Positions 9,334 to 29,621 of a DNA stretch of 34,936 nucleotides are shown piece after piece. The DNA lies in assembly GCA_021790425.1 (NCBI GenBank), contig JAJYEA010000020.1:1-34936 (forward strand), written 5' to 3'. This stretch comes from Thermoplasmata archaeon. GTDB lineage: Archaea > Thermoplasmatota > Thermoplasmata > Lutacidiplasmatales > UBA184. A program made the translations under genes and the position numbers. Below the pieces are notes generated by a model. The model saw nothing but the letters and a program-made list of their open reading frames with translations, searched no databases and was not told the origin of the DNA. Position 1 is the stretch's first letter, and every line of letters starts with the position of its first letter.

Positions 9334-9340
9334 GCTTAAG
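9334..9340 (+). promoter_or_regulatory. TATA-like box for the Nudix-methyltransferase pair
   Basis: GCTTAAG centred 27 bases upstream of the ATG at 9364, so the transcript is probably leaderless. The next gene follows closely and probably shares it. Confidence 0.55.
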
Positions 9341-9363
9341 GCGACCGTTCCCTTCAGGAAGGC

Positions 9364-9819: not shown

Positions 9820-9851
9820 GCACGGTGGGCGACCCTCCCAGGAGCCTGCCC

Positions 9852-10445
9852 ATGATCCCGACCCGCGAGGACCGGATGTGCCAGGCGAAAGCCCTGGACA
9901 ACGTGTTCCGCCGGCGTTTCGGCCCCCCCTCCCGCCTGGTGGACCTCCTCGACGTGCGGGAGGGAATGACCGTGGCCGACCTCGGCGCCGGCGTGGGCTA
10001 CTACGCCCCCGAGGTCCTCCGCCGGATCGGGACGAAGGGGCGGCTCTACCTGGTGGACATCGATGAGGAGAACCTCGCGATCGCCCGACGGCGGTGCGGG
10101 AATGACCCGCGACTGACGGTGATGACGGGGACGGCGGCGAAGGTCCCGGGCATCCCCGACTCGAGCGTGGACCGGTGCCTCCTCTCGCTCGTGCTCTGCT
10201 GCCTTGCGGACAAGTCGGGCGCGATCGGCGAGACCTGGCGGGTCCTCAAGCCGGGCGGGGTCGCGGTCGCCACCTTCCCGTATCGGGCCCGGCGTCCCCC
10301 TGCCAAGAGCCGGCGCCTGGGCCTCACGCGGGAGATGTTCCAGGAGCTCGCGAGCGGGAGGCCCTGGACGGTGGAGCAGCTCCCAGGGCGCCTGGTGCGG
10401 CGGTACCGTTTGCGGAAGCCGCCGACCGCGGCCGGGAGCCCCTGA
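9852..10445 (+). CDS. Class I SAM-dependent methyltransferase
   Basis: A 197-residue Rossmann-type methyltransferase. Motif I VADLGAGVGYYA, with the acidic end of strand 2 (LVDIDEEN) about 30 residues on, places SAM. The segment SVDRCLLSLVLCCLAD and then WRVLKPGGVAVATFPY are the usual post-I and strand 5-6 features of UbiE/Methyltransf_11-like enzymes. The substrate is not predictable; small-molecule or arsenite-type methyltransferases share this fold, but no Cys triad is clear. Start: ATG at 9852 has AGGAG seven bases upstream. A GTG at 9816 overlapping the Nudix stop as GTGA would add 12 residues and is the alternative. The 3' end is 18 bases from a convergent operon. Confidence 0.85.
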   Translation: MIPTREDRMCQAKALDNVFRRRFGPPSRLVDLLDVREGMTVADLGAGVGYYAPEVLRRIGTKGRLYLVDIDEENLAIARRRCGNDPRLTVMTGTAAKVPGIPDSSVDRCLLSLVLCCLADKSGAIGETWRVLKPGGVAVATFPYRARRPPAKSRRLGLTREMFQELASGRPWTVEQLPGRLVRRYRLRKPPTAAGSP

Positions 10446-10463
10446 CCGGTCGCGGCTCCGGGC

Positions 10464-11540
10464 TCAGAGCACCACTTGGCTCGCGTCGCCCAGTACGAAT
10501 GAGTGTCCTTTGGGAAGGTGCCGGCGCTCGGTCATCGTGGTTCCGCGCCCCACGATGCTGTCCACGATCCGGAAGGGGACGTCCACGGTGACGTTCTCCA
10601 TCAGGATGCTCCGCTCCACCTCGGCCCGGCGGATCACCGAGCCGTCCCCGATCGAGGTGTACGGCCCGATGTAGGCTCCGGATTCGATCCGCACGTTCTG
10701 GCCCAGGACGACGGGCCCCCGCACCGTGGCCCCGGCGGCGATCTCGCCGCCCGGTCCGAGGGCCACGTGCCCGCTCACGTTCGCTCCGTGGTCGATGCGC
10801 CCCTCGACCCGGAAGAAGGCAGGGGGGCGGGACGCGAGCACGCGTTCGTTCGCCTCCAGGAGGTCGTTCGGCTGCCCGGTGTCCTTCCACCAGCCATCGA
10901 GCTCGATGACCTGCACCTTCCCCGTCCGCTGGTGCAGGGCCCAGATCGCATCGGTGATCTCGAGCTCGCCGCGGGCGGAGGGTTTCAGCGACTCGATGAT
11001 CGGGTGGATGGCGGGGGTGAAGAGGTAGACGCCGATGAGGGCGAGGTTGCTCTTCGGGAGCGCGGGCTTCTCCTCGATGGAGACGATGCGGGACTGCCCG
11101 TCCAGTTCGACCACCCCGTAGTGGCGCGGGTCCTTCACCTTCACCGCCCCGACCACGGCCGTGGCGTCGCCCTGGGCGAAGCGCTGGACGTACGGGGCCG
11201 CGCCGTGCTCGAGCATGTTGTCCCCCAGGTACATCAGGAAGTCGTCCTCGCCGAGGAACTCGCGGGCGCAGAGGACGGCGTGGGCCAGACCTTTGGGGTC
11301 CCCCTGCGAGATGTAGTGCACCCGCACCCCGAAGCGGGAGCCGTCCCCGATCTGCTCCTCGATCCCTTCCTTGATCGGGCCCAGGATGATGGCGACGTCC
11401 CGCACCCCCGCCTCCTTGAGGTGCTCGAGCCCGTAGTAGAGCAGCGGACGGTTCGCGATCGGGAGCATGTGCTTGTTCCCGTTCCATGTCAGCGGGCGCA
11501 GCCGCGTTCCGTGGCCGCCCGCGAGAAGGAGGCCCTTCAT
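10464..11540 (-). CDS. rmlA: Glucose-1-phosphate thymidylyltransferase, long archaeal type
   Basis: A 358-residue sugar nucleotidyltransferase with a C-terminal left-handed beta-helix. The N-terminal loop LLAGGHGTRLRPLT (residues 4-17) and MLPIANRPLLYY, then YLGDNM, IEEKP and LELDGWWKDTGQP-like features (ELDGWWKDTG) match dTTP:glucose-1-phosphate thymidylyltransferases. From about residue 245 on, hexapeptide-like repeats (GANVSGHVALGPGGEIAAGA and following) form the helix. It should make dTDP-glucose for RmlB encoded upstream in the same operon. The ATG at 11540 overlaps the preceding TGA (ATGA); a longer in-frame start nine codons upstream lies in the neighbour and is less likely. Sugar specificity is inferred from the neighbours. 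Confidence 0.88.
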   Translation of the reverse strand: MKGLLLAGGHGTRLRPLTWNGNKHMLPIANRPLLYYGLEHLKEAGVRDVAIILGPIKEGIEEQIGDGSRFGVRVHYISQGDPKGLAHAVLCAREFLGEDDFLMYLGDNMLEHGAAPYVQRFAQGDATAVVGAVKVKDPRHYGVVELDGQSRIVSIEEKPALPKSNLALIGVYLFTPAIHPIIESLKPSARGELEITDAIWALHQRTGKVQVIELDGWWKDTGQPNDLLEANERVLASRPPAFFRVEGRIDHGANVSGHVALGPGGEIAAGATVRGPVVLGQNVRIESGAYIGPYTSIGDGSVIRRAEVERSILMENVTVDVPFRIVDSIVGRGTTMTERRHLPKGHSFVLGDASQVVL

Positions 11541-12130
11541 GGCCGGACCACCTCGACCCTCTCCCACCCGAAGGGAAGGCCGCCGGCCGCCGGGATCGGG
11601 AGCTCCGCGAAGGGGACCCTGCCCTCGTCAGCCGGGTCGTAGAGCCGGGTGGGGTAGTTCTGGAGCAAGAACGGCTCCTGCGACAGGTTCCCGATGCAGT
11701 GGTACACCTGGGGGGGAATGGTCACGAGGTAGGTGGTCGCGTCCTCCTTCTTCCGCGGCCGGGTCGCATTCCAGGTCGGCTCGGCCCCCGCCATCCGCGC
11801 GAGCGTGAACCGGCCCTCCGTCGGACTCCGAGGGCGGGCGTCGTAGAGTGCGAGCACCATCTCCCCGAGGAGGACCACGAACCGGTCCACCTGGTGCTGA
11901 TGGACGTGCCAGCGGTCCGCGTCCCGCATCTGCCCGGGGACCGTGAGCGACAGATAGCTCATCGCGAAGGTGTCCCCCTTCACGGTGGTATCGTCGGACC
12001 GCAGGGTCTCGACGAGGAACCCCCGGGGGTCATGGTGGGCGGTGCGCGGAAGCACGACAACGTCCTGGATCCCGATCTCGGTCGGGGACACCGTGCGGAG
12101 CTTCGGCACCACGATGCCGCCGAAGAACAA
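11537..12130 (-). CDS. rmlC: dTDP-4-dehydrorhamnose 3,5-epimerase-like cupin
   Basis: A cupin-fold protein of up to 197 residues between rmlB- and rmlA-like genes. DPRGFLVETLR near residues 34-44 is the RmlC N-terminal signature, the His-rich RWHVHQHQVDRFVVLLGEM (about 93-111) occupies the catalytic-histidine strand, and a later IPPQVYHCIGNLS resembles the P-x-G-x-x-H strand. RmlC epimerises dTDP-4-keto-6-deoxyglucose at C3 and C5. The catalytic strand differs enough from classical RmlC (HxHQHQ in place of GLHFQ) that a related sugar epimerase or isomerase is possible. The start is uncertain: TTG at 12130 is used here; GTG at 12112 or 12109 would shorten it by 6-7 residues. The stop overlaps rmlA (ATGA). 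Confidence 0.8.
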   Translation of the reverse strand: MFFGGIVVPKLRTVSPTEIGIQDVVVLPRTAHHDPRGFLVETLRSDDTTVKGDTFAMSYLSLTVPGQMRDADRWHVHQHQVDRFVVLLGEMVLALYDARPRSPTEGRFTLARMAGAEPTWNATRPRKKEDATTYLVTIPPQVYHCIGNLSQEPFLLQNYPTRLYDPADEGRVPFAELPIPAAGGLPFGWERVEVVRP

Positions 12131-12139
12131 GGCGAGGGC

Positions 12140-13123
12140 TTAACCGTTGTGGGGACGGACGAGGGGCTCCCACCAGGAGCGGTGCTCCTGGTACCAGGCG
12201 ACCGTGCGGGCGAGCCCCTCGTCGAAGCTCACCTCGGGCTTCCATCCGAGGCTCTCCCGGAGGTGCGAGGGATCGATGGCATAGCGCCGGTCGTGCCCCA
12301 GCCGGTCCGCCACCGGCTCGATGCTCTCGGGCTCGCGGTGCAGCAGGGCGAGCAGCCGGGCGAGCACCTCCCGGTTGGACCGTTCCCCGTCCGCACCGAC
12401 GAGGTAGGTCTGTCCCGGTGTTCCCCGGCGGGCGATCGCGGCGAGCGCCCGCGCGTGATCCTCCACGTGGATCCAGTCCCTCACGTTCGCCCCGTCCCCG
12501 TAGAGGGGCACCTTCTTTCCCTGCAGGAGGCGGGTGATCGCGAGCGGGATGAGCTTCTCCGGGTGCTGGAAGGGTCCGTAGTTGTTCCCGCAGTTGGAGA
12601 TCAGGACCGGAAGGCCGTAGGTGTGATGGTAGGCCCGCGCCAGGTGGTCGGCGGCCGCCTTGCTCGCGGCATACGGGCTTCGCGGGTCGTAGCGGGAGGT
12701 GAGCGTGAACCGGAGCTCGGGATGGTCGAGCGGGAGGCTCCCGAAGACCTCGTCCGTGGAGACGAGGAGGAAGCGCCCCACGTCGTGCTTCCGGGCCCCT
12801 TCGAGGAGCGTCCGGGTCCCGAGCACGTTCGTGGTCAGGAAGGGGGCGGGGTCCGCGAGCGACCGGTCGACGTGCGTCTCGGCCGCGAGGTGGAGCACCA
12901 GGCCGGCTCCGCGGAGGGCGGTGTCCACGACGTCCGGGTCGACGATGTCCCCGAGGACGAACCGGATCTTCCCGGCTTGCTCGAGCGGGGCGAGCGACTC
13001 GCGGTGACCGGCGTAGGTGAGCTTGTCGAGCACCACCAGCTCGTCCTCCGGGTAGGCATCGGACCAGTGGTAGGCGAGGTTCGCCCCGATGAACCCGGCA
13101 CCGCCCGTGAGGATGACCTTCAT
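12140..13123 (-). CDS. rmlB: dTDP-glucose 4,6-dehydratase
   Basis: A 327-residue extended SDR. The NAD-binding TGGAGFIGANL is at residues 6-16, HLAAETHVDRS at about 78-88, STDEVFG at 122-128 and the catalytic Tyr151-x3-Lys155 in SPYAASK, all typical of RmlB. It converts dTDP-glucose to dTDP-4-keto-6-deoxyglucose. It is the first gene of rmlB-rmlC-rmlA, the order in which the products would be used except that rmlA comes last. The ATG at 13123 lies about 26 bases from a TATA-like CTTAACT, so the mRNA is probably leaderless. Nine bases separate its stop from the TTG of rmlC. Confidence 0.93.
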   Translation of the reverse strand: MKVILTGGAGFIGANLAYHWSDAYPEDELVVLDKLTYAGHRESLAPLEQAGKIRFVLGDIVDPDVVDTALRGAGLVLHLAAETHVDRSLADPAPFLTTNVLGTRTLLEGARKHDVGRFLLVSTDEVFGSLPLDHPELRFTLTSRYDPRSPYAASKAAADHLARAYHHTYGLPVLISNCGNNYGPFQHPEKLIPLAITRLLQGKKVPLYGDGANVRDWIHVEDHARALAAIARRGTPGQTYLVGADGERSNREVLARLLALLHREPESIEPVADRLGHDRRYAIDPSHLRESLGWKPEVSFDEGLARTVAWYQEHRSWWEPLVRPHNG

Positions 13124-13184: not shown

Positions 13185-16100
13185 CTACATCGGGGGAGGC
13201 TCGCGGGGAAGTCGCGTGGCGGCTCCCGTCCGGAGATAGATCTCGGCCGCCATCGTGGAGAACCGCTCGGAGGCGTCCACGGTCCCGAACGTCAGCTCCC
13301 ATCGCGAGAGCTCGTCCAGGGAGTGGGCCTCCTCGATCACGTCGCGCACCGTTCGTGCCACCTCGAGGGCCCGCTCGGCGGCCCTCCGGGAGTCGTCGCG
13401 CTCGCCGCGGACCCGCGCGAGCTGCGCCTGCGTCCGGTAGTACGCCGGGACCTCGTGGGGCTTGAGCGTGGCCGCAGGGTCTCGGACGGTCGCGAGCGCG
13501 CTGGCCGCCCCCGGGATGTCCCCGAGGGCGAGGCGCGCGGCGGCCAGGGTGACCTGGTAGCCCGCGATGGGGCCGGTGGCGTTGCTCGCCCGGATCCGCT
13601 GGACCGCGGCCTCGAGCCGCTCGACCGCCCGTTCGGCGTGCCCTTCCGCCAGGTCGATCCGGGCCTCGGGGAGCAGGAAGAGCTCCTCATCGGCCCCCAT
13701 CGCGAACCGCCGGGCCACGGTCCGTCCTTCGTGGATGAAGTCGCGCGCCCGGTCGTACTTCCCCATCAGGATGTAGAGCGAGGCGAGGTCCCAACAGGAG
13801 GTGGCCGTGCCCGTGACGTTCCCGCGGTCGCGCAGGATGCGATGGTAGACGAGCTCGGCTTCCTCGGCCCGTGCGAGCTCCCCGTGATAGACCGCCGTCA
13901 CCGCCTCCAACCCGAGGAAGTAGGCCCGGAATCGGTCGAGGCCGAGGCGCTCCGCGAGCGCCCGCCCCCGGGCGAGGCAGTCCTCGTACGTCGGCTCATC
14001 GTCCAGCTCGCGGGCCGTCCAGCCCGCATCGTAGTACCACCGGTCGATGAGCCACGAGGGCACCGCTCCGCCGACCGCGATCGCGTCCCGGTAGGCGGCG
14101 AGGGCGGAGCGGAGGTGGCCGCGCGAGTACTGGAGGTTGCCCTCGATCGCCCGCTCGAGCGCGTGGAAGAAGGGCGGGATCGCTTCCCCCTGGGCCTCCA
14201 GGTTCTCCCGGAGCTGGTAGATCTGCCGGTGGGCGCCCTCCGGGTCCTCCTGGCTCGCCACGAAGGCGCGGTAGGCGGCGATCGTGGCGTGGGGCCCCGG
14301 GGTCGCCCAGAGGTCCATCAGGAGCTCGAGCATGCGGTCGACCGCCGGGTGGCGTCCCACGATGGAATGGAGACGGAGCGTGTACTCCTGCCCGATCTGG
14401 AGGCGCTCGTCCGTCCCCGTCCGGTCCGTCTCCAGCAGCTCCTGGAGCCAGCGGTGGTAGCGCTCGACGGTCTCCGGTGATGTCTCCGCGATGCCCCGCT
14501 CGATGGCGCGCTTCACCCACGTCGGCCCGTCGTGGACATTGCGCGCCAGGTGGAACAGCCGGGCGACCCGCTCGACGTCCTCCGGGCGATGATGCGCGCT
14601 CCAACGGGCGAGCGTCTCGGCATCGGCTCGGAGCCGGGCCTCGGGGACCTCGGAGAGGAGCGCCTCCCAGACCAGCTGGTGGGCGAAGGACCACCGTCCG
14701 CCCGGCTCCTTCGGGCGCTCGAGCAGCCCGTGCTGTCGCGCCATCCGGTCGAAGGTGGACGTGAGCTCCGGGAGGGGGCGCCCGAGCGCGGCCGCGAGGT
14801 GGGCCGGCTCGAACTCGCTCCCGGCCACGGCGGCGAACTCGAGCAGGCTCCGGTCCTCGGGGGCGAGCATCCGGAGGCGCCGGAGCACGAGGCGCTTCAA
14901 CGTGTCGGGGAGGTGCAGGCCGTCCCCGTCCCCGGAGGAAGGGGGGATCTCGAGGACTGCCTGCCCGCCCCGCAGCGCGAGATGACCGTCAGCCCGCAGC
15001 TGCCGCACGAGCTCGAGCAGGAAGTAGGGGCTCCCTTCCGCCTTGTCGAGCAGCGGGCTCAGGCTCCCCGTTCCCGGGCCGAGCCGGGGGGGTGCTCCCA
15101 GCAGGTGTCCGCAGAGCTCGGCCAGGGAGGTGTCCTCCATCCGTCCCAGCGGGAGGGGGGCGAGCGTGCCCTCGCGGCGCATCGCGTCGAGGGTCTCCTC
15201 GAGCGGAGCATCCCCCGCCTCCGTGACCATCTCCCCCTCCGTCTCGCGCAGGGAGGCCACGATCAGGACGGGAAGCCCCCGGGTGTTCCGGGAGAGGAAC
15301 TGGAATGCCTGGAGGGACTGCGGGTCGGCCCACTGCAGGTCGTCGAGGAAGAGGACCTGGGGGCGCTGACGCGCCCACTTCTCAATCGACTCGAGGTAGC
15401 GGAGCATGACGATGGCGGGGGCTTCCTCGACCCTCACGGGCTCGGCGACCGCCGGGCGGTTCGCGCTCCGGACCTCTCCCTCCCCGTTGAGGAGGGCGAC
15501 CTCGCGCGCCTCGAGGGCCAGGGGGTTGTAGGAGACGAAGAGGAACCCTCCGGTGGCCTCGACCCAGTCCCGGAGGAACTGGACGAGCTTGAGGACCGGT
15601 AGGAACTGGTTCTGGCTGACGAGGTACTCGAGCCCGGAGATGCCCACCACGGCCCCGGGCTTCGACTCGAGGTGACGGCCCGCGAGCTCGGCCATCGTGT
15701 CGAGCGCGGTGGGATTGAGCGTCCCGGGGGCCTCGACCCGCGAGAGCCCGAGCACGCGGGTCTCGGGGCCGAGCCCGGGGAACTTCTGCCGCAGGCCCGC
15801 CTCCCGCTCCCGGGAGATCAGGAGCGTGGGGTGCTCGCGGGAGAGCTCCACGAGGCTCTGGAAGAAGCGGGTGGGCCGTTCCTCCTCGAAGAGGAGGACG
15901 GGAGGGATCTTGGGGCCCCCGTCCGTCGTGTCCGCGGGAGGCCTCCCGTCCGGCTCGGCCTGGCGGAAGATCTGGTAGAAGGGGAAGTAGGCATTGTTCG
16001 CCTCCTTGAGGCAATACCCCCACCGGATGTCGAAGCCTCGTGCCCGGCTCCGGTCCTCGAGCCAGTGGAGGAGCCGGGTCTTCCCGATGCCCGTGGGCCC

Positions 16101-16217
16101 CTGCACCGTCCAGGTGCTGCCATGCCCTGCCACCGCCTGGTCGAGCGCCGCCTCCAAGAGCGTGCGTTCGCGAGCGCGCCCGACGAACGGAGGACCCTGT
16201 GCAACGGCCATCTCCAT
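13185..16217 (-). CDS. Large P-loop ATPase with inserted DUF835 domain and TPR-like tail
   Basis: A 1010-residue AAA/STAND-like protein. Residues 10-60 begin an ATPase domain (FVGRARE, Walker A GPTGIGKT at 40-47). About 106-248 match the archaeal DUF835 pattern (PTLLISRE, GLEYLVSQNQFLPVLKLVQF, then FVSYNPLALEAREV). The ATPase core then resumes with Walker B VLFLDDLQWAD at 288-298 and a sensor-like VLIVASLRETEG. About 430-560 look like a winged-helix or STAND helical region (LKRLVLRRLRMLAPEDRSLL). From about 600 to 990 lie TPR-like helical repeats. Such proteins usually act as nucleotide-dependent regulatory scaffolds. ATG at 16217 has GGAGGGG upstream. It is not coupled to rmlB. The partner or ligand is unknown. 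Confidence 0.85.
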   Translation of the reverse strand: MEMAVAQGPPFVGRARERTLLEAALDQAVAGHGSTWTVQGPTGIGKTRLLHWLEDRSRARGFDIRWGYCLKEANNAYFPFYQIFRQAEPDGRPPADTTDGGPKIPPVLLFEEERPTRFFQSLVELSREHPTLLISREREAGLRQKFPGLGPETRVLGLSRVEAPGTLNPTALDTMAELAGRHLESKPGAVVGISGLEYLVSQNQFLPVLKLVQFLRDWVEATGGFLFVSYNPLALEAREVALLNGEGEVRSANRPAVAEPVRVEEAPAIVMLRYLESIEKWARQRPQVLFLDDLQWADPQSLQAFQFLSRNTRGLPVLIVASLRETEGEMVTEAGDAPLEETLDAMRREGTLAPLPLGRMEDTSLAELCGHLLGAPPRLGPGTGSLSPLLDKAEGSPYFLLELVRQLRADGHLALRGGQAVLEIPPSSGDGDGLHLPDTLKRLVLRRLRMLAPEDRSLLEFAAVAGSEFEPAHLAAALGRPLPELTSTFDRMARQHGLLERPKEPGGRWSFAHQLVWEALLSEVPEARLRADAETLARWSAHHRPEDVERVARLFHLARNVHDGPTWVKRAIERGIAETSPETVERYHRWLQELLETDRTGTDERLQIGQEYTLRLHSIVGRHPAVDRMLELLMDLWATPGPHATIAAYRAFVASQEDPEGAHRQIYQLRENLEAQGEAIPPFFHALERAIEGNLQYSRGHLRSALAAYRDAIAVGGAVPSWLIDRWYYDAGWTARELDDEPTYEDCLARGRALAERLGLDRFRAYFLGLEAVTAVYHGELARAEEAELVYHRILRDRGNVTGTATSCWDLASLYILMGKYDRARDFIHEGRTVARRFAMGADEELFLLPEARIDLAEGHAERAVERLEAAVQRIRASNATGPIAGYQVTLAAARLALGDIPGAASALATVRDPAATLKPHEVPAYYRTQAQLARVRGERDDSRRAAERALEVARTVRDVIEEAHSLDELSRWELTFGTVDASERFSTMAAEIYLRTGAATRLPREPPPM

Positions 16218-21845: not shown

Positions 21846-22406
21846 CTAGAGCCCTCGGAAGAGGTCCGCCTGGGTGAGGATCCCGACGGGCTTGCCGCGC
21901 TCCGTGATCAGGACCGCGGGGGCATGCTTGAGGAGCGCCGCCGCGACCTTCCCGGGGGTGCTCGCGTCCAGGGTCGGGAAGGGTTTCTGCATGACCTCCC
22001 CGACGGTGACCTGCTCGAGGGGCCGCGACTTGCCATGGTCCGCCAGGCACTCCACCACCCTCCGGTCCGTGAGGCTCCCGACGATGTACTCCCCCTCCTT
22101 CACGGGAAGCTGGCTCACGCCGTGCGTGCGCATCAGGTGGGCTGCGACCGTGAGCCGGTCCCGCGGCCTCACGGTGATCATCGTCCGTGTCGCGAGGTGA
22201 CCCGCCGGGGCCTCGCGCGTGTTCTCCTCCCCGATCCGCTCCAGCGTCTCGTAGAGCGCGACCACGTTCCGGTAGGAGGGCTCCACCTTGCCCCGCTCGA
22301 TCTTGGCCACGAGCGACTGGCTCACGCCGGCCAGCCGCGCGAGCCGACCCTGCGTGAGCCCGGACTGGACCCGGCGCCGCCGGAGCTCGGAGAGCGGGGG
22401 GAACAT
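21846..22406 (-). CDS. XRE-family HTH protein with paired CBS domains
   Basis: A 186-residue regulator: an XRE/HTH_3 domain at about 5-58 (RVQSGLTQGRLARLAGVSQSL, then VAKIERGKVEPSY), then two CBS motifs (about 67-122, with HGVSQLPVKEGEYIVGSLTDR; about 130-186, ending VGILTQADLFRGL). CBS pairs usually bind adenine nucleotides or SAM, so this is probably a ligand-controlled repressor or activator, a form common in archaea. It is divergent from the threonine operon with only 88 bases between start codons, in which a perfect 10-base palindrome lies. The ATG is about 24 bases from a CTTATAGG box, so the transcript is likely leaderless. Confidence 0.92.
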   Translation of the reverse strand: MFPPLSELRRRRVQSGLTQGRLARLAGVSQSLVAKIERGKVEPSYRNVVALYETLERIGEENTREAPAGHLATRTMITVRPRDRLTVAAHLMRTHGVSQLPVKEGEYIVGSLTDRRVVECLADHGKSRPLEQVTVGEVMQKPFPTLDASTPGKVAAALLKHAPAVLITERGKPVGILTQADLFRGL

Positions 22407-22425
22407 GACCGTGGGACGCGAAATT

Positions 22426-22433
22426 CCTATAAG
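22426..22433 (-). promoter_or_regulatory. TATA-like box for the XRE-CBS gene
   Basis: CTTATAGG on the minus strand, about 24 bases upstream of the ATG at 22406. Its upstream end overlaps the palindrome at 22432-22441. Confidence 0.55.
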
Positions 22434-22441
22434 AATATTCT
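22432..22441. promoter_or_regulatory. Perfect 10-base palindrome, candidate operator
   Basis: AGAATATTCT is a perfect palindrome in an otherwise GC-rich chromosome. It lies between the TATA-like boxes of the divergent XRE-CBS regulator and threonine operon, touching the first. The position suits autoregulation and control of the operon, but binding is not shown by the sequence. Confidence 0.4.
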
Positions 22442-22452
22442 GTGCAACGCGA

Positions 22453-22459
22453 CTTAACT
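22453..22459 (+). promoter_or_regulatory. TATA-like box for the threonine operon
   Basis: CTTAACT, about 39 bases upstream of the thrC ATG at 22495, which leaves a leader of about 10-14 bases. Confidence 0.5.
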
Positions 22460-22494
22460 ACGGACCCGGGTTCCGCAACGCTCGAGGCAAGCGC

Positions 22495-23841
22495 ATGGGA
22501 GCACGGAAGGCAAAAGGTCGGAAGAGCGAGATCACCTTGGAGGAACTGGCGGACGAAGGGTCGTTGGCGGCCGCGCTCACCTGCGAGGAGTGCTCCACGC
22601 TCTTCCCGTTGGACGCGCGCACCGCGTGCGACCGGTGCTTCGGACCCCTTTCCGTGGTCTACGGCCACGGGCCGTTGCGGGGGACCTCGCCGGACGAGGT
22701 GCTGGCCGGTCGCGCTCCGGGGCTGTGGCGCTACCTCGAGCTCCTGCCTCCGGTCTCGCCCGCCTCCCGGGAGCGGGTCCCGCTCGGCCCCTCGCCGTTG
22801 CGTCCCGCCCCGAGGCTCGCGCGGGCGCTCGGCCTCCGGGAGCTCTGGCTGAAGGAGGACCTGGCCCTCCCGAGCGGTTCGTTCAAGGACCGGCCGGCCG
22901 GGTTCGCGGTGGCCTACGCCCGGGACCTGGGGTACCCCGCGGTGGGCTGTGCCTCCACCGGGAACCTCGCCGCGGCCACGGCCCGGGCCGCGACGCTGTC
23001 GGGGCTCCCGGCGTGGACGTTCGTCCCCGCCGGGCTGCCAGAGGCGAAACTCCTGCCCGTGCGCATCTTCGGCGGTGGGATCGTGGAGGTCGAGGGGACC
23101 TACGACGACGCGAACCGGGTCGCCCAGGTCCTTGCGGACGAGGACCGCCTCGGTCTGGTGAACATCAACCTGCGCCCCTACTACGTCGAGGCCTCCAAGA
23201 CCCTCGCGTTCGAGATCCTGGAGGAGCGCCATTGGGACCCTCCGGCGGTGTGGGGCATCCCGCTCGGCTCCGGGGCGCTCCTCTCGGCGACGTTCCGCGC
23301 GCTCATGCAGGTCCAGGACATCGGGTGGCTCGATAGCTCCGAGGAGGAGCTCCCCCGGCTGGTCGGGTCCCAGCCGGAGGGATGCGCCCCCATCGCGGAA
23401 GCGTTCCGGAAGGGGTCGGAGGAGATCGTTCCCGTCGCCCATCCCGAGACCATCGCGGAGAGCCTCGCCATCGGCAACCCCGCCTCGGGCTACGACGCGC
23501 TCGGCGCCATCCGCAAGACGGGCGGTGCCGCCGATGCTCCTACTGCGGACGAGGTACGGTGGGCCCTGCGCGAGGCCGCGCGCCTCGAGGGGGTCTGGTC
23601 CGAGCCTGCGGGAGGCACCGTGCTCGCCACGTTCAAGCGCCTGGTCGATCAGGGCACGCTGGACCGCTCGGACTCCGCCGTGGCCTTCCTCACGGGGGCG
23701 GGATGGAAGACCCCCCCGGTCTGGGAGGGCCAGGACCTCGGACCCCGCCTGCGCGTCTCGGCCCGGGAACGGTCCCTCACCCTGCCCGACCTTGCCGCCT
23801 TCCCCTCGCTCGCGGGAGCCGCGGCGCACGGAGAGGTCTGA
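22495..23841 (+). CDS. thrC: Threonine synthase-like PLP enzyme
   Basis: A 448-residue fold-type II PLP enzyme. A four-Cys zinc ribbon (C30-x2-C33, C45-x2-C48) precedes the catalytic core, as in many archaeal threonine synthases. The PLP lysine is K131 in GSFKDR, followed by CASTGNLAAATARAA, which binds the substrate carboxylate. The usual GNAGN phosphate-binding loop of PLP is replaced by PLGSGALLSATFRA. It should convert O-phosphohomoserine to threonine, and the operon supplies that substrate (hom, thrB). Because a MoaD/ThiS-like gene follows five bases later, a related sulfhydrylase role is an alternative. The ATG at 22495 has a close TATA-like box. Confidence 0.85.
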   Translation: MGARKAKGRKSEITLEELADEGSLAAALTCEECSTLFPLDARTACDRCFGPLSVVYGHGPLRGTSPDEVLAGRAPGLWRYLELLPPVSPASRERVPLGPSPLRPAPRLARALGLRELWLKEDLALPSGSFKDRPAGFAVAYARDLGYPAVGCASTGNLAAATARAATLSGLPAWTFVPAGLPEAKLLPVRIFGGGIVEVEGTYDDANRVAQVLADEDRLGLVNINLRPYYVEASKTLAFEILEERHWDPPAVWGIPLGSGALLSATFRALMQVQDIGWLDSSEEELPRLVGSQPEGCAPIAEAFRKGSEEIVPVAHPETIAESLAIGNPASGYDALGAIRKTGGAADAPTADEVRWALREAARLEGVWSEPAGGTVLATFKRLVDQGTLDRSDSAVAFLTGAGWKTPPVWEGQDLGPRLRVSARERSLTLPDLAAFPSLAGAAAHGEV

Positions 23842-23845: not shown

Positions 23846-24127
23846 ATGGTCCACGTGTTCTTCTCCGGTGCCCTCAAGGCCGTGACGAACGGGGTCGCCC
23901 GCCTCGAGCTTCCCGACTTCGCGGAGGGCGACCTCGACACCCTCCTCCGGTCGCTCGCGGGCCGGTTCGGGCCCTCGTTCTCGGATCGCCTCACGGAGGA
24001 CGGGCATCTCCGGCGGTATGTGAACGTCTTCGTCAACGGTGAGGACGTCCGGTTCGCCCGCGGACTGCAGACCCCCGTCGGTCCTGCGGACTCGGTCGAC
24101 TTCATCCCGGCCGTGGCGGGGGGGTGA
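23846..24127 (+). CDS. MoaD/ThiS-like ubiquitin-fold protein (small sulfur carrier)
   Basis: A 93-residue beta-grasp protein of MoaD/ThiS type. It begins VHVFFSGALKAV, has the helix DTLLRSLAGRFGPSFSDRL, the strands YVNVFVNGEDVR and DSVDFIPAVAGG, and ends with a bare Gly-Gly, as required for C-terminal adenylation and thiocarboxylation or for protein conjugation. It sits between threonine synthase (five bases upstream) and homoserine dehydrogenase. No E1-like (ThiF/MoeB) or molybdopterin genes lie nearby. It may serve molybdopterin, tRNA thiolation or SAMP-like conjugation, or donate sulfur to a PLP enzyme of the operon. Confidence 0.9.
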   Translation: MVHVFFSGALKAVTNGVARLELPDFAEGDLDTLLRSLAGRFGPSFSDRLTEDGHLRRYVNVFVNGEDVRFARGLQTPVGPADSVDFIPAVAGG

Positions 24128-24132: not shown

Positions 24133-25215
24133 ATGGAGAGTGTACGTCCAAGGATCTTCCTCCTCGGGTTCGGTGGCGTGGGGCGTACCCTGGCCCGTCG
24201 GCTCCTGGAGAAGGGGCCGATCCGCGCCCCGGGGTGGAACGTCGTCGCGGTCGCCGATTCCCGGGGAGTGCTGTACGACGAAGGCGGGGTGGACCTCGCC
24301 GAAGCGCTCCGGGTCAAGGAGACGACCGCCTCGCTCGGCCCGGCCGGGGCGCGCGCCTGGGATGCCCGAGAAGCTCTCGCCCGGGTCGTGCCCGACATCG
24401 TGGTCGAGGCGACCCTCTCGGACCCCCTACGGGGCGAGCCAGGGACGGGTCACGTGCTCCAAGCCCTGCGCGGGGGCGCCGACGTGGTGACCTGCAACAA
24501 GGGTCCGCTCGCGGTCCGCTACGTGGAGGTCGAGCAGGCCCTTCGCGAGTCGGGCCGCCGTCTGCGGTACGGTACGACGGTAGGAGGTATCGTTCCCATC
24601 TTGGAGACGCTCGTCGAACGTCTCCCGGCGGCGGAGATCACCGGAGTGGACGCGGTGCTCAACACCTCCACGCAGTTCGTGCTCCACCGGCTGGGATGCG
24701 GGCTCTCGTTCCCGCAGGCCTGGGAGGAGGCTCGCCGGCTGGGCTACACGGAACCCGACCCCCGGCGGGACCAGGAGGGATGGGATGCCGCGATGAAGGC
24801 CGCCATACTCCACAACCTGCTCTTCGGGCGTCCCATCGCCCCGGCCGACGTGCGTCGGGAGCCGCTCACGCCCGACAGCGAGGCGCGGGCGCTCCGGGCG
24901 ATCCAGAACGGGGGACGGCTCGTCTCCCTCACGCGCGTGCGCTCCGGTCAGGCTTCGGTAGAGCTCACCGAAGTGGACGCCGACAGCCACTGGGTGCTCC
25001 CCGGTGGCGTCAATCGCTTCTGCATCGAGACCCGCCGTGCGGGAACGCTCACCTTGGAGGGGCGGGGGGCGGGCCCGGAGGAGACCGCGAGCGGGCTCTT
25101 GGCGGACCTCCTCACGCTCCTGCGAGGGTCGGGCCCCTCCTCTGCCTCCCCTCCGATCGGGGAAAGGTATTCCCTGCCCCGCCCGGCGTGGACGCCGGCG
25201 GGGGCGGTCGGGTAG
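24133..25215 (+). CDS. hom: Homoserine dehydrogenase
   Basis: A 360-residue monofunctional homoserine dehydrogenase reducing aspartate semialdehyde to homoserine. The NAD(P) fold starts with LLGFGGVGRTLAR (10-22), followed by VTCNKGPLA and the catalytic region RYGTTVGGIVPI. NTSTQFVL stands for the usual NGTTNYIL, and EPDPRRDQEGWDAAMKAAIL carries the catalytic Asp and Lys. A C-terminal ACT domain is absent, so threonine feedback through this enzyme is not expected. The ATG at 24133 is used; a GTG at 24124 overlaps the preceding stop (GTGA) and is possible, adding three residues. Aspartokinase and homoserine kinase follow in the operon; asd is not in the window. Confidence 0.92.
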   Translation: MESVRPRIFLLGFGGVGRTLARRLLEKGPIRAPGWNVVAVADSRGVLYDEGGVDLAEALRVKETTASLGPAGARAWDAREALARVVPDIVVEATLSDPLRGEPGTGHVLQALRGGADVVTCNKGPLAVRYVEVEQALRESGRRLRYGTTVGGIVPILETLVERLPAAEITGVDAVLNTSTQFVLHRLGCGLSFPQAWEEARRLGYTEPDPRRDQEGWDAAMKAAILHNLLFGRPIAPADVRREPLTPDSEARALRAIQNGGRLVSLTRVRSGQASVELTEVDADSHWVLPGGVNRFCIETRRAGTLTLEGRGAGPEETASGLLADLLTLLRGSGPSSASPPIGERYSLPRPAWTPAGAVG

Positions 25216-25222: not shown

Positions 25223-26278
25223 ATGTCGAGCGTCGTTACCGAGGGCGGCTACCGGCATGCGAACGGGCCGAAGGGGCCCTTCCCCCCGGAACCGGCCCGG
25301 CGGTCCGGACTGCCCCCGCTCACCGCCTTCGCGCCCCCCGGGGTGCGCCCCCGTTACGTGCGGGTGGAGGCCCCGTGCAGCATCGCCAACGTCGGCCCGG
25401 GCTTCGACCATCTCGCGGTCGCCCTCGCGTCGCCCGTGGACACCCTCGAGCTCCGGTACGCCTCGCGATGGGGGTTCGAGGTGGTGGGCGACAGCGACCT
25501 GCCCGCTTCCTGGGAGGAGAACGCGGCCGGCGTCGCCGCCCGCTCCCTCTTCCAACGGTTCGGCCCGCCGGGCGTGCTGCGGGCCCGGCTGGTCAAGGGA
25601 TTCCGCGGCTCGAGCGGCATCGGCTCCAGCGGGGCCTCGGCCGCCGCCGGGGCCTTCGCCGCGGCGGCCCTCCTCGGACTCGACCCGGAGGATCCGGGGG
25701 TCGTCGGTGCCGTCGTGGAGGCCGCGCTCGCCGGTGAGGAGGCCGCGAGCGGTGCGCGCCACCTCGACAACGTGGCGGCCAGCCTGTTTGGCGGGCTCAC
25801 GTTCTCGGAAGCGGAAGATCCCCCGCGGGTCCACTCCGTCTGGCCAGGGGCTCCCGCGACCTGGGTCATCGCGGTCCCGGACCTCCGGCTCTCCACCCGG
25901 GAGTCCCGGGGCGTGTTGCCCGCCCAGGTTCCCTTCGGTGACGCGGTGATCAACGTAGCCCGTGCCTCTGGCCTCCTGCTCGGCTGGGTCCAAGGGGACC
26001 TCGCCTTGGTGGGCCGCAACTTCGGCGACCGCCTGGCGGAACCGTACCGCGCTCCCCTGGTGCCCGGGTTCGAGGTCGCCCGTCGGCGGGCGCTGGCCGC
26101 TGGCTCGTACGGCGTAATGCTATCGGGGAGCGGACCGGCCCTCGCCGCGCTCGTGCCTCCGACCCGGGTCGGGGCCGTCGGTAAGGCCTTCCGCGAGGCG
26201 TTCCACTCGGTCGGCCGAGCGGTTGACGTTCTGACCTCCGGGGTCGGCGCCGGAGCCCGTCTCACGGGGTGGTCGTGA
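25223..26278 (+). CDS. thrB: Homoserine kinase (GHMP family)
   Basis: A 351-residue GHMP kinase that phosphorylates homoserine to O-phosphohomoserine, the substrate of threonine synthase. The ATP-binding GSSGIGSSGASAAAG lies at 129-143, the N-terminal strand APCSIANVGPGFDHL at 50-64 and the C-terminal GVMLSGSGPALAALV near 295-310. Compared with E. coli ThrB (about 310 residues) the protein has about 45 extra N-terminal residues, Pro-rich and probably disordered; a GTG at 25343 would remove most of them. The ATG at 25223 is eight bases after the hom stop, which fits the packed operon. Downstream, the lysC GTG overlaps its TGA. Confidence 0.9.
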   Translation: MSSVVTEGGYRHANGPKGPFPPEPARRSGLPPLTAFAPPGVRPRYVRVEAPCSIANVGPGFDHLAVALASPVDTLELRYASRWGFEVVGDSDLPASWEENAAGVAARSLFQRFGPPGVLRARLVKGFRGSSGIGSSGASAAAGAFAAAALLGLDPEDPGVVGAVVEAALAGEEAASGARHLDNVAASLFGGLTFSEAEDPPRVHSVWPGAPATWVIAVPDLRLSTRESRGVLPAQVPFGDAVINVARASGLLLGWVQGDLALVGRNFGDRLAEPYRAPLVPGFEVARRRALAAGSYGVMLSGSGPALAALVPPTRVGAVGKAFREAFHSVGRAVDVLTSGVGAGARLTGWS

Positions 26279-27069
26279 GCGCCGCCGACCTCCTCGTGGT
26301 CAAGTTCGGGGGATCCGGACTCGCGACCGCGGAGCGGATCGTCGAGGCGGCCCGGGCCGTCCGGGATCACCCTGCCCGCGGGAAGCTTGTCGTGGTCAGC
26401 GCCCCGGGAACGACCACGGACCGGCTGTGGGAGACCCTCCGGAGGTCCGGGGACAGCCTCGACCCGGCCGACATGGCCTCCGTGCTCTCCCTCGGCGAGC
26501 GGCTGAGCGCCCGCCTTCTCGCCGCCGTGCTCCGCTCGCTCGGGGTCGCGGTCGTCGAGGTCGAGCCGGAGGACGCACGCTGGCCCATCGTCACCCGCGG
26601 CGGGTCGCTGGGGGCCCGGCTCGATTTCGATGCCAGCCGGGCGAGGGCCATCGCGGGTCTCCGTCCCCTCCTGGACGAGGGCGCGACCGTGGTGGTCTGC
26701 GGCTTCCTCGGAACAGAGGACGGCCACGTGACCACGATGTCCCGCGGGGGGAGCGACACGACCGCGGTGGCGTTGGGGAGGGCGCTCGACGCCCGGGAGG
26801 TGCTGCTGGTGAAGGACGTCCCCGGGGTCTTCTCCGACGACCCCCGGCAGGTCCCCGGGGCCCGCCGGCTCCCGGAGGTCACGGTCGAGTTCCTCCGAGG
26901 GGTGGCCCGCCGAGGGGGTCGGATCGTGGCGCTCGAAGCCCTCGACCACCTGGGCCCGGGCCCGGTCGTGCGCATCGTGCCCCGGGGCCCGTCCCTCCTG
27001 GGGCATGCGGGCACGACGGTGGTGGCGCCCGCTCCAGCGGACCCGAAGGGCGGGGCCCTGTCATTCTAA
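26275..27069 (+). CDS. lysC: Aspartokinase, short form without ACT domains
   Basis: A 264-residue aspartate kinase of the amino-acid kinase fold: VVKFGGSGLA at about 8-17, then SLGERLSARLLA and MSRGGSDTTAVALG, which bind the substrate and ATP, and VLLVKDVPGVFSDDPRQV, the ATP-binding lid. The catalytic domain fills the whole protein; the two ACT domains that give feedback inhibition in ordinary aspartokinases (about 400-450 residues) are missing. A stop follows the catalytic domain directly, and no ACT-only gene is adjacent. Start: GTG at 26275 overlapping the thrB stop (GTGA); GTG at 26269 would add two residues. It should make aspartyl phosphate for the first step of threonine synthesis. Confidence 0.88.
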   Translation: MSAADLLVVKFGGSGLATAERIVEAARAVRDHPARGKLVVVSAPGTTTDRLWETLRRSGDSLDPADMASVLSLGERLSARLLAAVLRSLGVAVVEVEPEDARWPIVTRGGSLGARLDFDASRARAIAGLRPLLDEGATVVVCGFLGTEDGHVTTMSRGGSDTTAVALGRALDAREVLLVKDVPGVFSDDPRQVPGARRLPEVTVEFLRGVARRGGRIVALEALDHLGPGPVVRIVPRGPSLLGHAGTTVVAPAPADPKGGALSF

Positions 27070-27558: not shown

Positions 27559-28362
27559 GTGACCGATTGGACACGGGTGGAGAAGCTGCGCACCCGCGGC
27601 ATGGCCTGGGACGAGATCGCCGACGACCCCCGGGTGGGGTTCTCCTCTCCTTCCGGGACCGACGCGGGCCGGGCGCTCAAGGCGCTGTACTTCCGGCGCC
27701 GCTCTACCACCCACGATCGGTCCCGGGGACGGCCTCGGCCTGTCACCGATGCGGGAAATCGCTCCTGGCTACATCTCTCCCGCCGCGGGATCGTGGTGCT
27801 GGCGCTCGCGGCCGCCTTCGTCGCGGTAGTCGGCTACCTCCTCGTGCAACCTCCGGGAGAGAGCGGGGCCCCTACGGGGTGGGTCGGGAAGACCGCCCCG
27901 GGCTTCTCCCTCGCCATCGCGAACCAACCCGGAACCTTCACCCTGTCCTCGGCCCGGGGACATCGCGATGTCCTCCTCTTCTTCAACGAAGGGTTGAGCT
28001 GCAGCCCGTGCCTGACCCAGATGGAGGAGTTGGACGCGAACGATGCGGACTTCACCTCGCTCAACGTGGAGGTGGTGCAGATCACGGGCGATTCCCAATC
28101 CGACATGGCGACCTGGGCCTCGAACGATCACGTCACGAACACGATCGTTTGCGCCGACCCCACACTCCAGGTGTCCAACCTCTACGACACGACCGGCGCC
28201 GCCGTCAGCATGATGCCGGGGAGCGCCCCCGGGCACACCTTCATTCTCGTGAACGAGTCGGGGACCGTGATCTGGCGCGCGGACTATGGGCCCTCCGACA
28301 TGTCCGTCCCCCTCTCGGAGATCCTCCAGAACGTGAGGAGCGCCCAGACGCAATATGGGTGA
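27559..28362 (+). CDS. Membrane-anchored thioredoxin/peroxiredoxin-like protein
   Basis: A 267-residue protein: an N-terminal cytosolic segment of about 70 residues (DWTRVEKLRTRGMAWDEIAD looks like a small helix-turn-helix fold), one membrane helix at 76-96, then an extracytoplasmic thioredoxin fold with PGFSLAIANQPG, LLFFNEGLSCSPC (CSPC at 148-151), the strand VEVVQITGDSQSD and a cis-Pro-region-like GSAPGHTFILVNESGTV. It is like TlpA/AhpC-type thiol reductases or peroxidases. The start is GTG at 27559. It precedes a small thioredoxin and a CcdA-like protein, from which it probably receives electrons. The N-terminal segment is unusual for TlpA proteins. Confidence 0.82.
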   Translation: MTDWTRVEKLRTRGMAWDEIADDPRVGFSSPSGTDAGRALKALYFRRRSTTHDRSRGRPRPVTDAGNRSWLHLSRRGIVVLALAAAFVAVVGYLLVQPPGESGAPTGWVGKTAPGFSLAIANQPGTFTLSSARGHRDVLLFFNEGLSCSPCLTQMEELDANDADFTSLNVEVVQITGDSQSDMATWASNDHVTNTIVCADPTLQVSNLYDTTGAAVSMMPGSAPGHTFILVNESGTVIWRADYGPSDMSVPLSEILQNVRSAQTQYG

Positions 28363-28365
28363 GCC

Positions 28366-28635
28366 GTGACGGAGGTGCTGGTCCTCGGCCGGGAGGGATG
28401 CACTCCGTGCCTGCGGGTCACCCGGCTCCTCGGCGAGATAGCGCGGGAGCGGCCCGGGCTCACCATCCGCGAGGTCCTGATGGACTCGGAGGAGGGCATT
28501 GCGCTCGCGCTGGAGAACGGCATCCTCGTCCCTCCCGCGGTGTTCCTCGACGGTAGCCTCTGGGCGAAGGGCAAGATCCGGGAGGAGGACCTCCGGCGGG
28601 CGCTGGGGGCGCCCTCCGCGCCCGGGGTCCCGTGA
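28366..28635 (+). CDS. Small thioredoxin-fold protein, CTPC active site
   Basis: An 89-residue thioredoxin/glutaredoxin-fold protein with a CTPC motif at 13-16 (GREGCTPCLRVTRLLGEI) and a cis-proline region NGILVPPAVFLDG near 52-64. This is the small, soluble redox type common in archaea. It starts with GTG at 28366, four bases after the previous stop, and its own TGA overlaps the GTG of the CcdA-like gene (GTGA). It would carry electrons between cytosolic reductase and CcdA. The short size and absence of a signal peptide place it in the cytosol. Confidence 0.9.
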   Translation: MTEVLVLGREGCTPCLRVTRLLGEIARERPGLTIREVLMDSEEGIALALENGILVPPAVFLDGSLWAKGKIREEDLRRALGAPSAPGVP

Positions 28636-29621
28636 TCGCGGCGTTCCTGGCCGCCACGCTCATCGTGGCGTTCCTCGCGGGAATGGTCGCACTGGCGATG
28701 CCGTGTTGCTTCACGGTGCTCCTCCCCGCGTATCTCGCCAAGTCGTTCGAATCCCTCACGGGGCGTGTCGGGATGACGGCGATTTTCGGGGCGGGGATCG
28801 CGACCATCCTCCTCCCCATCGCGATGGGGCTCACCTACTTCACCACCTTTCTCACCGTGAACCACCCTCTCTTCTTCGTGATCGGAGGGTTCTTCATGGT
28901 CGTTCTCGGGCTCTTGACCTTGTGGGGAACGTCCGTCATCCCCATGTTCAGTTTCGATGTGGATCTGAAGCGCAAGGATGCCCCCTCGGTCTATGCCCTG
29001 GGCGTCTTCTCGGGAGTGGCGAGCTCCTGCTGCGCCCCGGTCCTGCTCGGCGTGCTCGTGCTCGCCACCCTGTCCGGCAGCTTGCTGTTCGCCTTCTTCG
29101 TCGCCCTCGCGTACGTCGCGGGGATGGTCTTCCCCCTCCTCCTCATCGCGCTCTGGTGGGAGCAACGGGCGCGGGCCTCGCCGACCTTCCTGCAGGGCCG
29201 TCTGATCCACCTGAACATCTTCGGCTCGGACCTGTCGGTCCACTCCTCCAAACTGGTCGCCGGGATCCTGTTCATCGCGATGGGGTCCGTCACGATCACG
29301 TTGGGCGTGATGGATCGGATGATTTCCGTGCCCGGGTCCCAGGTCTTCGGCATCTACCAAGGGGTGATCGAGAGCGCGCTCCTGTCCGCATTGAACGGTT
29401 GGGCTGGCGTGGCGGTGACGGTAGCGGTCCTCCTCGCGCTCGGCCTGCTCTTCTACCACCTCCGACGTCGGCCGACCCCCATCGCGCGGAATCCCACCTC
29501 CGCGGCCGACGCAGAGACCCCGCCCCTGGAGGCGACGGCGGATCTCGCGGCGCAGGACGGCCGAGGTCTGACCGTCCCGCCCACGGTGACCGTGGGGGCC
29601 CCTTGGATGGAGCCTAAATAG
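28632..29621 (+). CDS. CcdA/DsbD-like thiol transporter with two vicinal Cys pairs
   Basis: A 329-residue polytopic protein with about six membrane helices (about 5-27, 45-68, 78-98, 120-150, 153-172, 215-245) followed by one more near 272-290 and a polar C-terminal tail. Cys-Cys pairs lie in MPCCFTVLLP (25-26) and ASSCCAPVLLG (133-134), at the positions where CcdA has its two single membrane cysteines. CcdA/DsbD proteins move electrons from cytosolic thioredoxin across the membrane to extracytoplasmic thiol proteins, and the neighbours are just those. The vicinal pairs and the adjacent CAPVLL resemble the metal-binding pair of MerT-type mercury transporters, so a metal role cannot be excluded. 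GTG start, GTGA overlap. Confidence 0.85.
   Translation: MIAAFLAATLIVAFLAGMVALAMPCCFTVLLPAYLAKSFESLTGRVGMTAIFGAGIATILLPIAMGLTYFTTFLTVNHPLFFVIGGFFMVVLGLLTLWGTSVIPMFSFDVDLKRKDAPSVYALGVFSGVASSCCAPVLLGVLVLATLSGSLLFAFFVALAYVAGMVFPLLLIALWWEQRARASPTFLQGRLIHLNIFGSDLSVHSSKLVAGILFIAMGSVTITLGVMDRMISVPGSQVFGIYQGVIESALLSALNGWAGVAVTVAVLLALGLLFYHLRRRPTPIARNPTSAADAETPPLEATADLAAQDGRGLTVPPTVTVGAPWMEPK
29613..29620 (+). promoter_or_regulatory. TATA-like box for the CGNR protein gene
   Basis: CCTAAATA at the end of the CcdA gene, about 28 bases upstream of the ATG at 29645; its last bases are the CcdA stop codon. An SD-like AGGAGG (29620-29625) follows directly, with ATG at 29628 opening a six-codon reading frame that ends by overlapping the CGNR ATG as ATGA. 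Confidence 0.4.

What the first reader, a model, noticed from the sequence alone, without database searches (positions are those of the whole stretch)
23846..24127. MoaD/ThiS-like sulfur carrier inside the threonine operon
Seen: a 93-residue beta-grasp protein ending Gly-Gly is placed between threonine synthase and homoserine dehydrogenase, five bases from thrC and overlapping or nearly touching hom. Known: some sulfur carriers (CysO with CysM; HcyS in homocysteine synthesis) work with PLP enzymes and are encoded beside them. Inference: the carrier may bring sulfur to O-phosphohomoserine, so this operon could make homocysteine as well as threonine. A role in tRNA thiolation or SAMP-like conjugation is also possible.
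Basis: partly seen in the sequence, partly recalled or inferred. Interest (0 to 1): 0.66.

Follow-up and report, generated by a model that had tools for sequence, protein, structure and literature searches.

The report
Homocysteine-making gene pair mislabelled as threonine
In this archaeon a small sulfur-carrier protein sits beside an enzyme annotated as threonine synthase, and comparison across many genomes suggests the pair instead puts sulfur into homocysteine, the precursor of methionine.

Summary
In detail: a 93-aa ThiS/MoaD-family protein ending Gly-Gly lies 4 nt after a thrC-like gene and 5 nt before hom, followed by thrB and an aspartokinase gene. The pairing is ancient. In a scan of named genomes with the linked-ThrC profile, 79 of the 80 best relatives have a carrier directly downstream, in archaea and bacteria; in ammonia-oxidising archaea it is fused to an E1 enzyme. 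These ThrC-like enzymes form one clade (100/100) apart from ordinary threonine synthases and differ from them at active-site positions. All 26 other genomes checked hold a second ThrC-like gene. Bacterial members, including an actinomycete, stand behind SAM riboswitches. The window's genome has its own MoaD+MoaE, a cysteine-synthase carrier with the only E1, no MetX and no HcyBio. Most likely this is an archaeal MetM/MetO-type system: thiocarboxylated carrier plus O-phosphohomoserine gives homocysteine. That chemistry is published for Streptomyces, so this is a new member of a known kind. Whether the enzyme also makes threonine is open. No biochemistry was done.

The parts
21846..22406 (-). 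HTH_3 + CBS-pair regulator, divergent, 88 nt upstream of the operon; proposed sensor/regulator of the operon
   Evidence: Pfam HTH_3 and CBS. Same gene at the same divergent place in 6 of 6 testable genomes of the family (window included) and 7 of 7 f11 loci, but in 0 of 6 f25 loci and 0 of 79 further named loci
22407..22494 (.). intergenic region shared by the regulator and the operon (presumed promoters)
   Evidence: sequence; no Rfam element reaches its threshold in the window
22495..23841 (+). ThrC-like PLP enzyme; proposed MetM-type O-phosphohomoserine-dependent homocysteine synthase
   Evidence: PALP 203.6 bits and TIGR00260 192.5 bits; lies in the carrier-linked clade, 100/100; carries the clade's signature residues
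23846..24127 (+). sulfur carrier protein (MetO-type), 93 aa ending Gly-Gly
   Evidence: Pfam ThiS; beta-grasp model close to CysO; conserved family A2
24133..25215 (+). homoserine dehydrogenase (hom); the only one found in this genome
   Evidence: PF00742 130.9 bits; single match in the genome
25223..26278 (+). homoserine kinase (thrB), makes O-phosphohomoserine
   Evidence: NF002288 257.1 bits over cut-off 194
26269..27069 (+). aspartokinase catalytic domain (lysC-like), 266 aa, no ACT domain reported
   Evidence: PF00696 129.2 bits; asp_kin models below their cut-offs

Best explanation
The gene is a MetO-type sulfur carrier and the neighbouring 'thrC' is its partner, a MetM-type homocysteine synthase. 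The proposed route runs from aspartate through homoserine to O-phosphohomoserine by the operon's kinase, Hom and ThrB, with aspartate-semialdehyde dehydrogenase encoded elsewhere (not searched). The genome's only E1, a carrier-E1-rhodanese fusion at G000:C74, adenylates the carrier's C-terminal glycine and its rhodanese domain delivers sulfur, giving a thiocarboxylate. The ThrC-like enzyme eliminates phosphate from PLP-bound O-phosphohomoserine, and instead of water (which would give threonine) the carrier's thiocarboxylate adds at C-gamma. Homocysteine is then freed by hydrolysis or by the JAMM protease encoded next to the E1, and is methylated by the core MetE-like enzyme or used in transsulfuration. 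Shown here: gene content, conservation, clade, signature residues, and SAM-riboswitch control in bacterial relatives. Inferred: every catalytic step in this organism. Whether the enzyme also makes threonine, being the only ThrC in this genome, is unresolved.
For: Linkage: 79 of 80 best named relatives have the carrier next door. Clade: 28 of 28 linked enzymes plus 1 unlinked form a 100/100 clade that includes SAM-riboswitch members and a cyanobacterial one; 37 other unlinked ThrC-like rows lie outside. Second ThrC in the same genomes: 26 of 26, of which 25 have a second match over the curated cut-off. In two families of the class the canonical thrC sits with hom while the linked thrC sits with the carrier. 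SAM riboswitch RF00162 on the same strand, 55, 62 and 492 nt upstream of thrC-carrier in L176, L194 and L180 and 13 nt upstream in Nonomuraea L245; in L185 at the head of a hom-thrC-thrB-lysC-(thrC-like)-carrier cluster. Own genome: one E1; CysM-JAMM-carrier/E1/rhodanese cluster; MoaD+MoaE apart; MetX 0, HcyBio 0; core MetE-like enzyme 1. Signature residues: T. thermophilus ThrC T88, N157, R160 and N188 become L158, R227, Y230 and S259. Published precedent MetM/MetO as cited in PMC12172450 (passages).
Against: The window enzyme is the only ThrC-like protein in a 98.6%-complete genome, so it could simply be the threonine synthase; TIGR00260 scores it over its threonine-synthase cut-off. PMC12172450 reports threonine synthase activity in vitro for a cyanobacterial enzyme of this kind and saw no methionine rise in cells. 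No SAM riboswitch in the window, in 9 of 9 cyanobacterial loci, or at L178 and L187. The genome holds three full-length PF01053 enzymes, which could make homocysteine by transsulfuration. A core MetE-like gene is in all 22 genomes searched, operon or not, so it does not discriminate. The homoserine O-succinyltransferase family was not searched. The carrier tree is poorly resolved.
Confidence: 0.8

Rival explanations
1. Bifunctional: the single ThrC-like enzyme makes threonine with water and homocysteine when loaded carrier is present, so the operon serves both amino acids.
For: No other ThrC in G000 or in G013. A cyanobacterial member has threonine synthase activity in vitro according to PMC12172450.
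Against: Residues aligned to T. thermophilus R160, N188 and T88 are replaced in the clade. Three same-genus genomes G002-G004 (91-98% complete) have no ThrC and no Hom, so the genus tolerates lacking threonine synthesis.
Confidence: 0.4
2. Ordinary threonine operon; the carrier serves another pathway (molybdopterin, tRNA thiolation or SAMP-like conjugation) and is only co-transcribed.
For: Profiles name the carrier SAMP1/moaD_arch below their cut-offs. SAMP1 and Urm1 are among the fold neighbours.
Against: Linkage to this ThrC subfamily in 79 of 80 loci across phyla. MoaD beside MoaE, a C48 74-aa Gly-Gly protein, a C2 SAMP1-like carrier and a cysteine-synthase carrier are encoded elsewhere.
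Confidence: 0.08
3. The carrier regulates the ThrC-like enzyme by covalent conjugation (SAMPylation) rather than feeding sulfur.
For: A JAMM protease (best model desampylase, below cut-off) and an E1 are in the genome.
Against: SAM-riboswitch control of the pair in bacteria fits sulfur/methionine metabolism. The closest folds are CysO-type sulfur carriers working with enzymes.
Confidence: 0.05
4. Homocysteine is made plant-like by a PF01053 enzyme from O-phosphohomoserine and cysteine, and the ThrC-like/carrier pair makes some other thiolated product.
For: Three full-length PF01053 enzymes in the genome, one next to cystathionine beta-synthase.
Against: Strong PF01053 matches occur in 21 of 23 genomes searched whether or not the operon is present, and the neighbouring CBS suggests the homocysteine-to-cysteine direction.
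Confidence: 0.07

Closest known systems
MetM/MetO of Streptomyces albulus (Hasebe et al. 2024, Appl Environ Microbiol 90:e01247-24; paper not held, seen only as cited in PMC12172450)
   Same: Threonine-synthase-like PLP enzyme with a ThiS/MoaD-type carrier encoded next to it; O-phosphohomoserine as substrate is available here (ThrB in the operon); an actinomycete relative behind a SAM riboswitch lies in the same clade
   Different: Archaeal; set in one operon with hom, thrB and an aspartokinase; no SAM riboswitch but a divergent HTH-CBS gene; no second threonine synthase in the genome; activity not tested
CysM/CysO/Mec of Mycobacterium tuberculosis (Mec recalled)
   Same: Carrier delivers sulfur to a PLP enzyme; nearest solved folds include CysO proteins
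   Different: CysO feeds cysteine synthesis. In this genome that role fits a separate CysM-like/JAMM/carrier-E1-rhodanese cluster at C74
HcyS/HcyD/HcyF with MetY of Wolinella (recalled, not seen in a call)
   Same: Carrier-based homocysteine synthesis
   Different: Uses a MetY-type enzyme and O-acetylhomoserine; here the partner is ThrC-like and MetX is absent
Microcystis ThrC with metO-like neighbour (PMC12172450)
   Same: ThrC-like/carrier pair; the authors report 51.6% identity to MetM
   Different: Studied as a threonine synthase/deaminase; cyanobacterial; genome context differs

Membership tests
MetM/MetO-type homocysteine synthase system | ThrC-like PLP enzyme and sulfur carrier encoded side by side | tested here: met
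   79 of 80 relatives
MetM/MetO-type homocysteine synthase system | Enzyme belongs to the same clade as SAM-riboswitch-controlled actinomycete and cyanobacterial members | tested here: met
   100/100 clade with L245 Nonomuraea and L172. The S. albulus sequence itself was not available
MetM/MetO-type homocysteine synthase system | Carrier ends Gly-Gly and an activating E1 exists | tested here: met
MetM/MetO-type homocysteine synthase system | Upstream SAM riboswitch (reported for S. albulus in PMC12172450) | tested here: not met
   No Rfam match in the window. PMC12172450 says the Microcystis gene also lacks it, so it is a trait of some members and not a defining one
MetM/MetO-type homocysteine synthase system | Homocysteine formed from O-phosphohomoserine and carrier thiocarboxylate | not testable with these tools
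   needs enzyme assay
Canonical threonine synthase | Residues aligned to T. thermophilus T88, R160 and N188 (recalled as contacts of the substrate phosphate) | tested here: not met
   L158, Y230, S259 in the window enzyme; T, R and N in 21, 21 and 19 of 21 canonical rows
Canonical threonine synthase | Makes threonine | not testable with these tools
   needs enzyme assay; it is the only ThrC in the genome
MoaD (molybdopterin synthase small subunit) | Encoded with or working with MoaE | tested here: not met
   MoaE sits beside another carrier at G000:C47; none beside the window gene
CysO | Encoded with CysM/JAMM | tested here: not met
   The CysM/JAMM cluster at C74 has its own carrier domain
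SAMP1 | Score over the NF041918 cut-off (60 bits) | tested here: not met
   40.8 bits

The most novel reading that the evidence does not exclude
The ThrC-like/carrier pair is a main entry of sulfur into methionine in much of the archaea (ammonia oxidisers with the carrier fused to its E1, Bathyarchaeota, Thermoplasmata) as well as in several bacterial phyla. In the window's lineage the whole 'threonine operon' is really a methionine operon: the only Hom and ThrC-like enzyme of the genome serve homocysteine, under a CBS-domain regulator that may sense S-adenosylmethionine.
Probability: 0.45. Interest if true: 0.75.

Novelty: new member of a known kind. Interest (0 to 1): 0.62.

Why it matters
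If true, many archaeal genes annotated as threonine synthase are homocysteine synthases. That would fill a gap in methionine synthesis for archaea without MetX or HcyBio and correct metabolic models. It gives a residue signature and a gene-neighbour rule for telling the two enzymes apart, and it adds another case of ubiquitin-like carriers feeding sulfur to PLP enzymes.

Tried and rejected
MoaD role: rejected, since MoaE sits with another carrier. CysO role: rejected, since CysM/JAMM has its own carrier fused to the E1. HcyBio route: 0 of 23 genomes. MetX route: 1 of 22, G245 only, 7% contaminated. MetE as a discriminator: useless, present in 22 of 22. A SAM riboswitch in the window: none. Carrier tree: too short to resolve; it only weakly separates the C74-type and C2-type carriers from the linked ones.

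Rows dropped: two short ThrC rows, L233 and L235. Of the 159 remaining rows 70 were kept after thinning at 68% identity. The second tree left out five long-branch rows (L111, L237, L098, L212_1720, L222) and added L245, giving 66 rows. One of the five, L222, is an unlinked row that fell inside the linked clade in the first tree. The linked rows that seeded profile A1 were chosen because they were linked, so the tree contrast is not blind; linkage in the 80 scanned loci was not selected for. Two of the 80 (L148, L149) are cut by the contig end. L121 is the named record of G061, already in the seed set.

Read as passages only: PMC12172450, PMC11237513, PMC13257386, PMC2948915, PMC1779556, PMC8397731, PMC7311316, PMC12452182. 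Hasebe 2024 was not held: nothing seen; details beyond the citing paper are recalled. The term searches inside PMC1779556 and PMC2948915 found no 'ThrC' or 'homoserine'. I found no paper on an archaeal ThrC/carrier pair in those nine searches, which cover open-licence papers only.

Full report
Observation. The ORF at 23846-24127 (+) encodes a 93-residue protein ending PAVAGG. Pfam assigns it to ThiS with 40.4 bits against a cut-off of 22.5; NCBIfam's SAMP1 and moaD_arch models match below their cut-offs. Its AF2 model (pLDDT 90.8) is closest to Amycolatopsis BexX/CysO (4n6e), a Thermus MoaD-related protein and M. tuberculosis CysO; the family profile finds the same CysO entries by sequence. 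It lies 4 nt after the stop of a ThrC-like gene (22495-23841) and 5 nt before ATG 24133 of hom. thrB and an aspartokinase catalytic domain follow.

The genome. G000 is 98.56% complete in 153 contigs. ThiS-family searches give four places. C47 is a MoaD next to MoaE. C74 is the N-terminal domain of a 491-aa carrier-E1-rhodanese fusion encoded after a JAMM protease and a CysM-like cysteine synthase. C2 is a SAMP1-like protein. C29 is the window gene. A further 74-aa Gly-Gly protein at C48 matches no family. The C74 fusion is the only E1. PALP enzymes number four. By the NCBIfam hits and, for the tryptophan-operon member, by my reading of its sequence, they are cystathionine beta-synthase (C122), CysM-like (C74), the window ThrC-like enzyme and TrpB (C4). 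So there is no second threonine synthase. HcyBio is absent (0 of 23 genomes) and MetX is absent from G000 (1 of 22 genomes has a match, G245 only). Three full-length PF01053 enzymes are present, none over the MetY model's cut-off. A core MetE-like enzyme is present.

Conservation in the class. Of the first 30 loci brought by the carrier search, those of G021, G013, G036, G008, G012 and G061 show thrC-carrier-hom-thrB, and G083, G112, G094, G120 and G104 show thrC-carrier. In family f25 the order thrC-carrier-thrB recurs (five loci with a readable carrier and thrB; in L089 and L090 a canonical thrC-hom pair lies on the same contig). In f11 a canonical thrC sits next to hom on another contig. 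Hom was searched in 22 genomes. Among 17 of family f1 it occurs in exactly the 7 that hold the thrC-carrier operon and is absent from the other 10; the 17 were not a random sample. Same-genus genomes G002-G004 have neither ThrC nor Hom.

Conservation beyond. A profile of 16 linked enzymes (A1) was used for the one scan of named genomes. The 80 best loci come from Nitrososphaerota, Thermoplasmata, Bathyarchaeota, Hydrothermarchaeota/Geoglobus, Methanohalophilus, cyanobacteria, Solirubrobacterales, Chloroflexi, KSB1 and unnamed lineages. A carrier domain lies directly downstream in 79 of 80 (43 free or cut by a contig end, 36 fused; the exception is L162, Caldarchaeum). In the ammonia oxidisers the carrier is fused to a ThiF-type E1, confirmed by Pfam on three examples. 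Several carriers extend past Gly-Gly (GG-AGF in G061, GG-I, GG-WM and others), as if they needed trimming. In all 26 genomes behind chosen named loci a second ThrC-like match exists at E <= 1e-20, over the curated cut-off in 25; G000 and G013 have one only.

Tree and signature. In an IQ-TREE analysis of 66 rows, 28 of 28 linked enzymes plus one unlinked (L162) form a clade with 100/100 support, apart from 37 other unlinked ThrC-like rows. A first tree of 70 rows gave the same clade with two unlinked members, one on a long branch. Comparing 27 linked with 21 canonical rows, 20 columns separate the groups; among the cleanest are L158/T, R227/N, Y230/R, S234/Q, S259/N and A325/R. Against T. thermophilus threonine synthase (1uim) these are T88, N157, R160, Q164, N188 and R242. 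I recall, without a call, that T88, N154, S155, R160 and N188 contact the substrate's phosphate in that enzyme, and that the released phosphate helps add water. Losing them would fit an enzyme that lets phosphate go and accepts another nucleophile. This is inference.

Regulation. SAM riboswitches (RF00162) lie on the same strand upstream of the pair in L176, L180 and L194, and in L185 at the head of hom-thrC-thrB-lysC-(thrC-like)-carrier: 4 of the 15 loci searched, namely 4 of 5 non-cyanobacterial bacteria, 0 of 9 cyanobacteria and 0 of 1 archaeon. A Nonomuraea locus found by protein search has riboswitch (2825-2966), ThrC-like gene (2980-4215) and carrier in a row, matching what PMC12172450 says of metM in S. 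albulus. The window has no Rfam match. Instead a divergent HTH-CBS gene is conserved in 6 of 6 testable f1 genomes and 7 of 7 f11 loci, and found in none of the others. CBS pairs often bind adenosyl compounds (recalled), so SAM sensing is a testable guess.

Interpretation. The pair looks like MetM/MetO. The simplest mechanism is elimination of phosphate from PLP-bound O-phosphohomoserine and addition of the carrier's thiocarboxylate, with release by hydrolysis or the C74 JAMM protease. One further pointer: PMC11237513 reports a cysH-thrC fusion in three Thermoplasmata assemblies (passage), again tying this kind of gene to sulfur; I did not test which ThrC clade that is. Against a pure homocysteine role stand the lack of another ThrC in G000 and the in vitro threonine synthase activity reported for a cyanobacterial enzyme of this kind, in whose cells methionine did not rise (PMC12172450). 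I therefore hold homocysteine synthesis at 0.8 and additional threonine synthesis at 0.4; the two overlap.

Novelty. The chemistry and pair are published for Streptomyces and noted for cyanobacteria. New here, as far as the nine searches of open papers show, are the archaeal members, the E1 fusion in ammonia oxidisers, the near-full aspartate-to-homocysteine operon, the HTH-CBS gene and the residue signature. The primary paper was not held, so I cannot say whether its authors listed archaea.

Noticed in passing
G000:C74 (L052:4463-7442 -): CysM-like cysteine synthase, JAMM protease and a carrier-E1-rhodanese triple fusion in a row: a CysO/CysM/Mec-like cluster with everything needed to load carriers; the fused carrier would need cutting after Gly-Gly.
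   Followed up: partly
L102, L105, L107, L108, L112, L117, L118 (family f1): ThrC-like genes outside the linked clade; two of the holders (G005, G050) lack homoserine dehydrogenase altogether, so their substrate is unclear.
   Followed up: no
L066:9839-10123 (-) and L121: The G061 carrier has three residues (AGF) after Gly-Gly, suggesting proteolytic maturation.
   Followed up: partly
L162 (Caldarchaeum): Linked-clade ThrC with full signature but no carrier next door.
   Followed up: no
window 26269-27069 (+): Aspartokinase of 266 aa with no ACT domain reported, so possibly not feedback-regulated in the usual way.
   Followed up: no
window 13185-16217 (-): 1010-aa AAA_16 ATPase with DUF835 and weak MalT-like TPR matches.
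   Followed up: no
window 1326-13123 (mostly -): Nucleotide-sugar cluster: two tested NTP_transferases, UDP-glucose-type dehydrogenase, 4,6-dehydratase and weak RmlC-like epimerase.
   Followed up: no
window 27559-29621 (+): AhpC/TSA protein, thioredoxin-like 89-aa protein and an unassigned 329-aa protein just after the operon.
   Followed up: no
G000:C48 (L081:17827-18051 -): 74-aa protein ending Gly-Gly with no Pfam or NCBIfam match; possibly another carrier.
   Followed up: no
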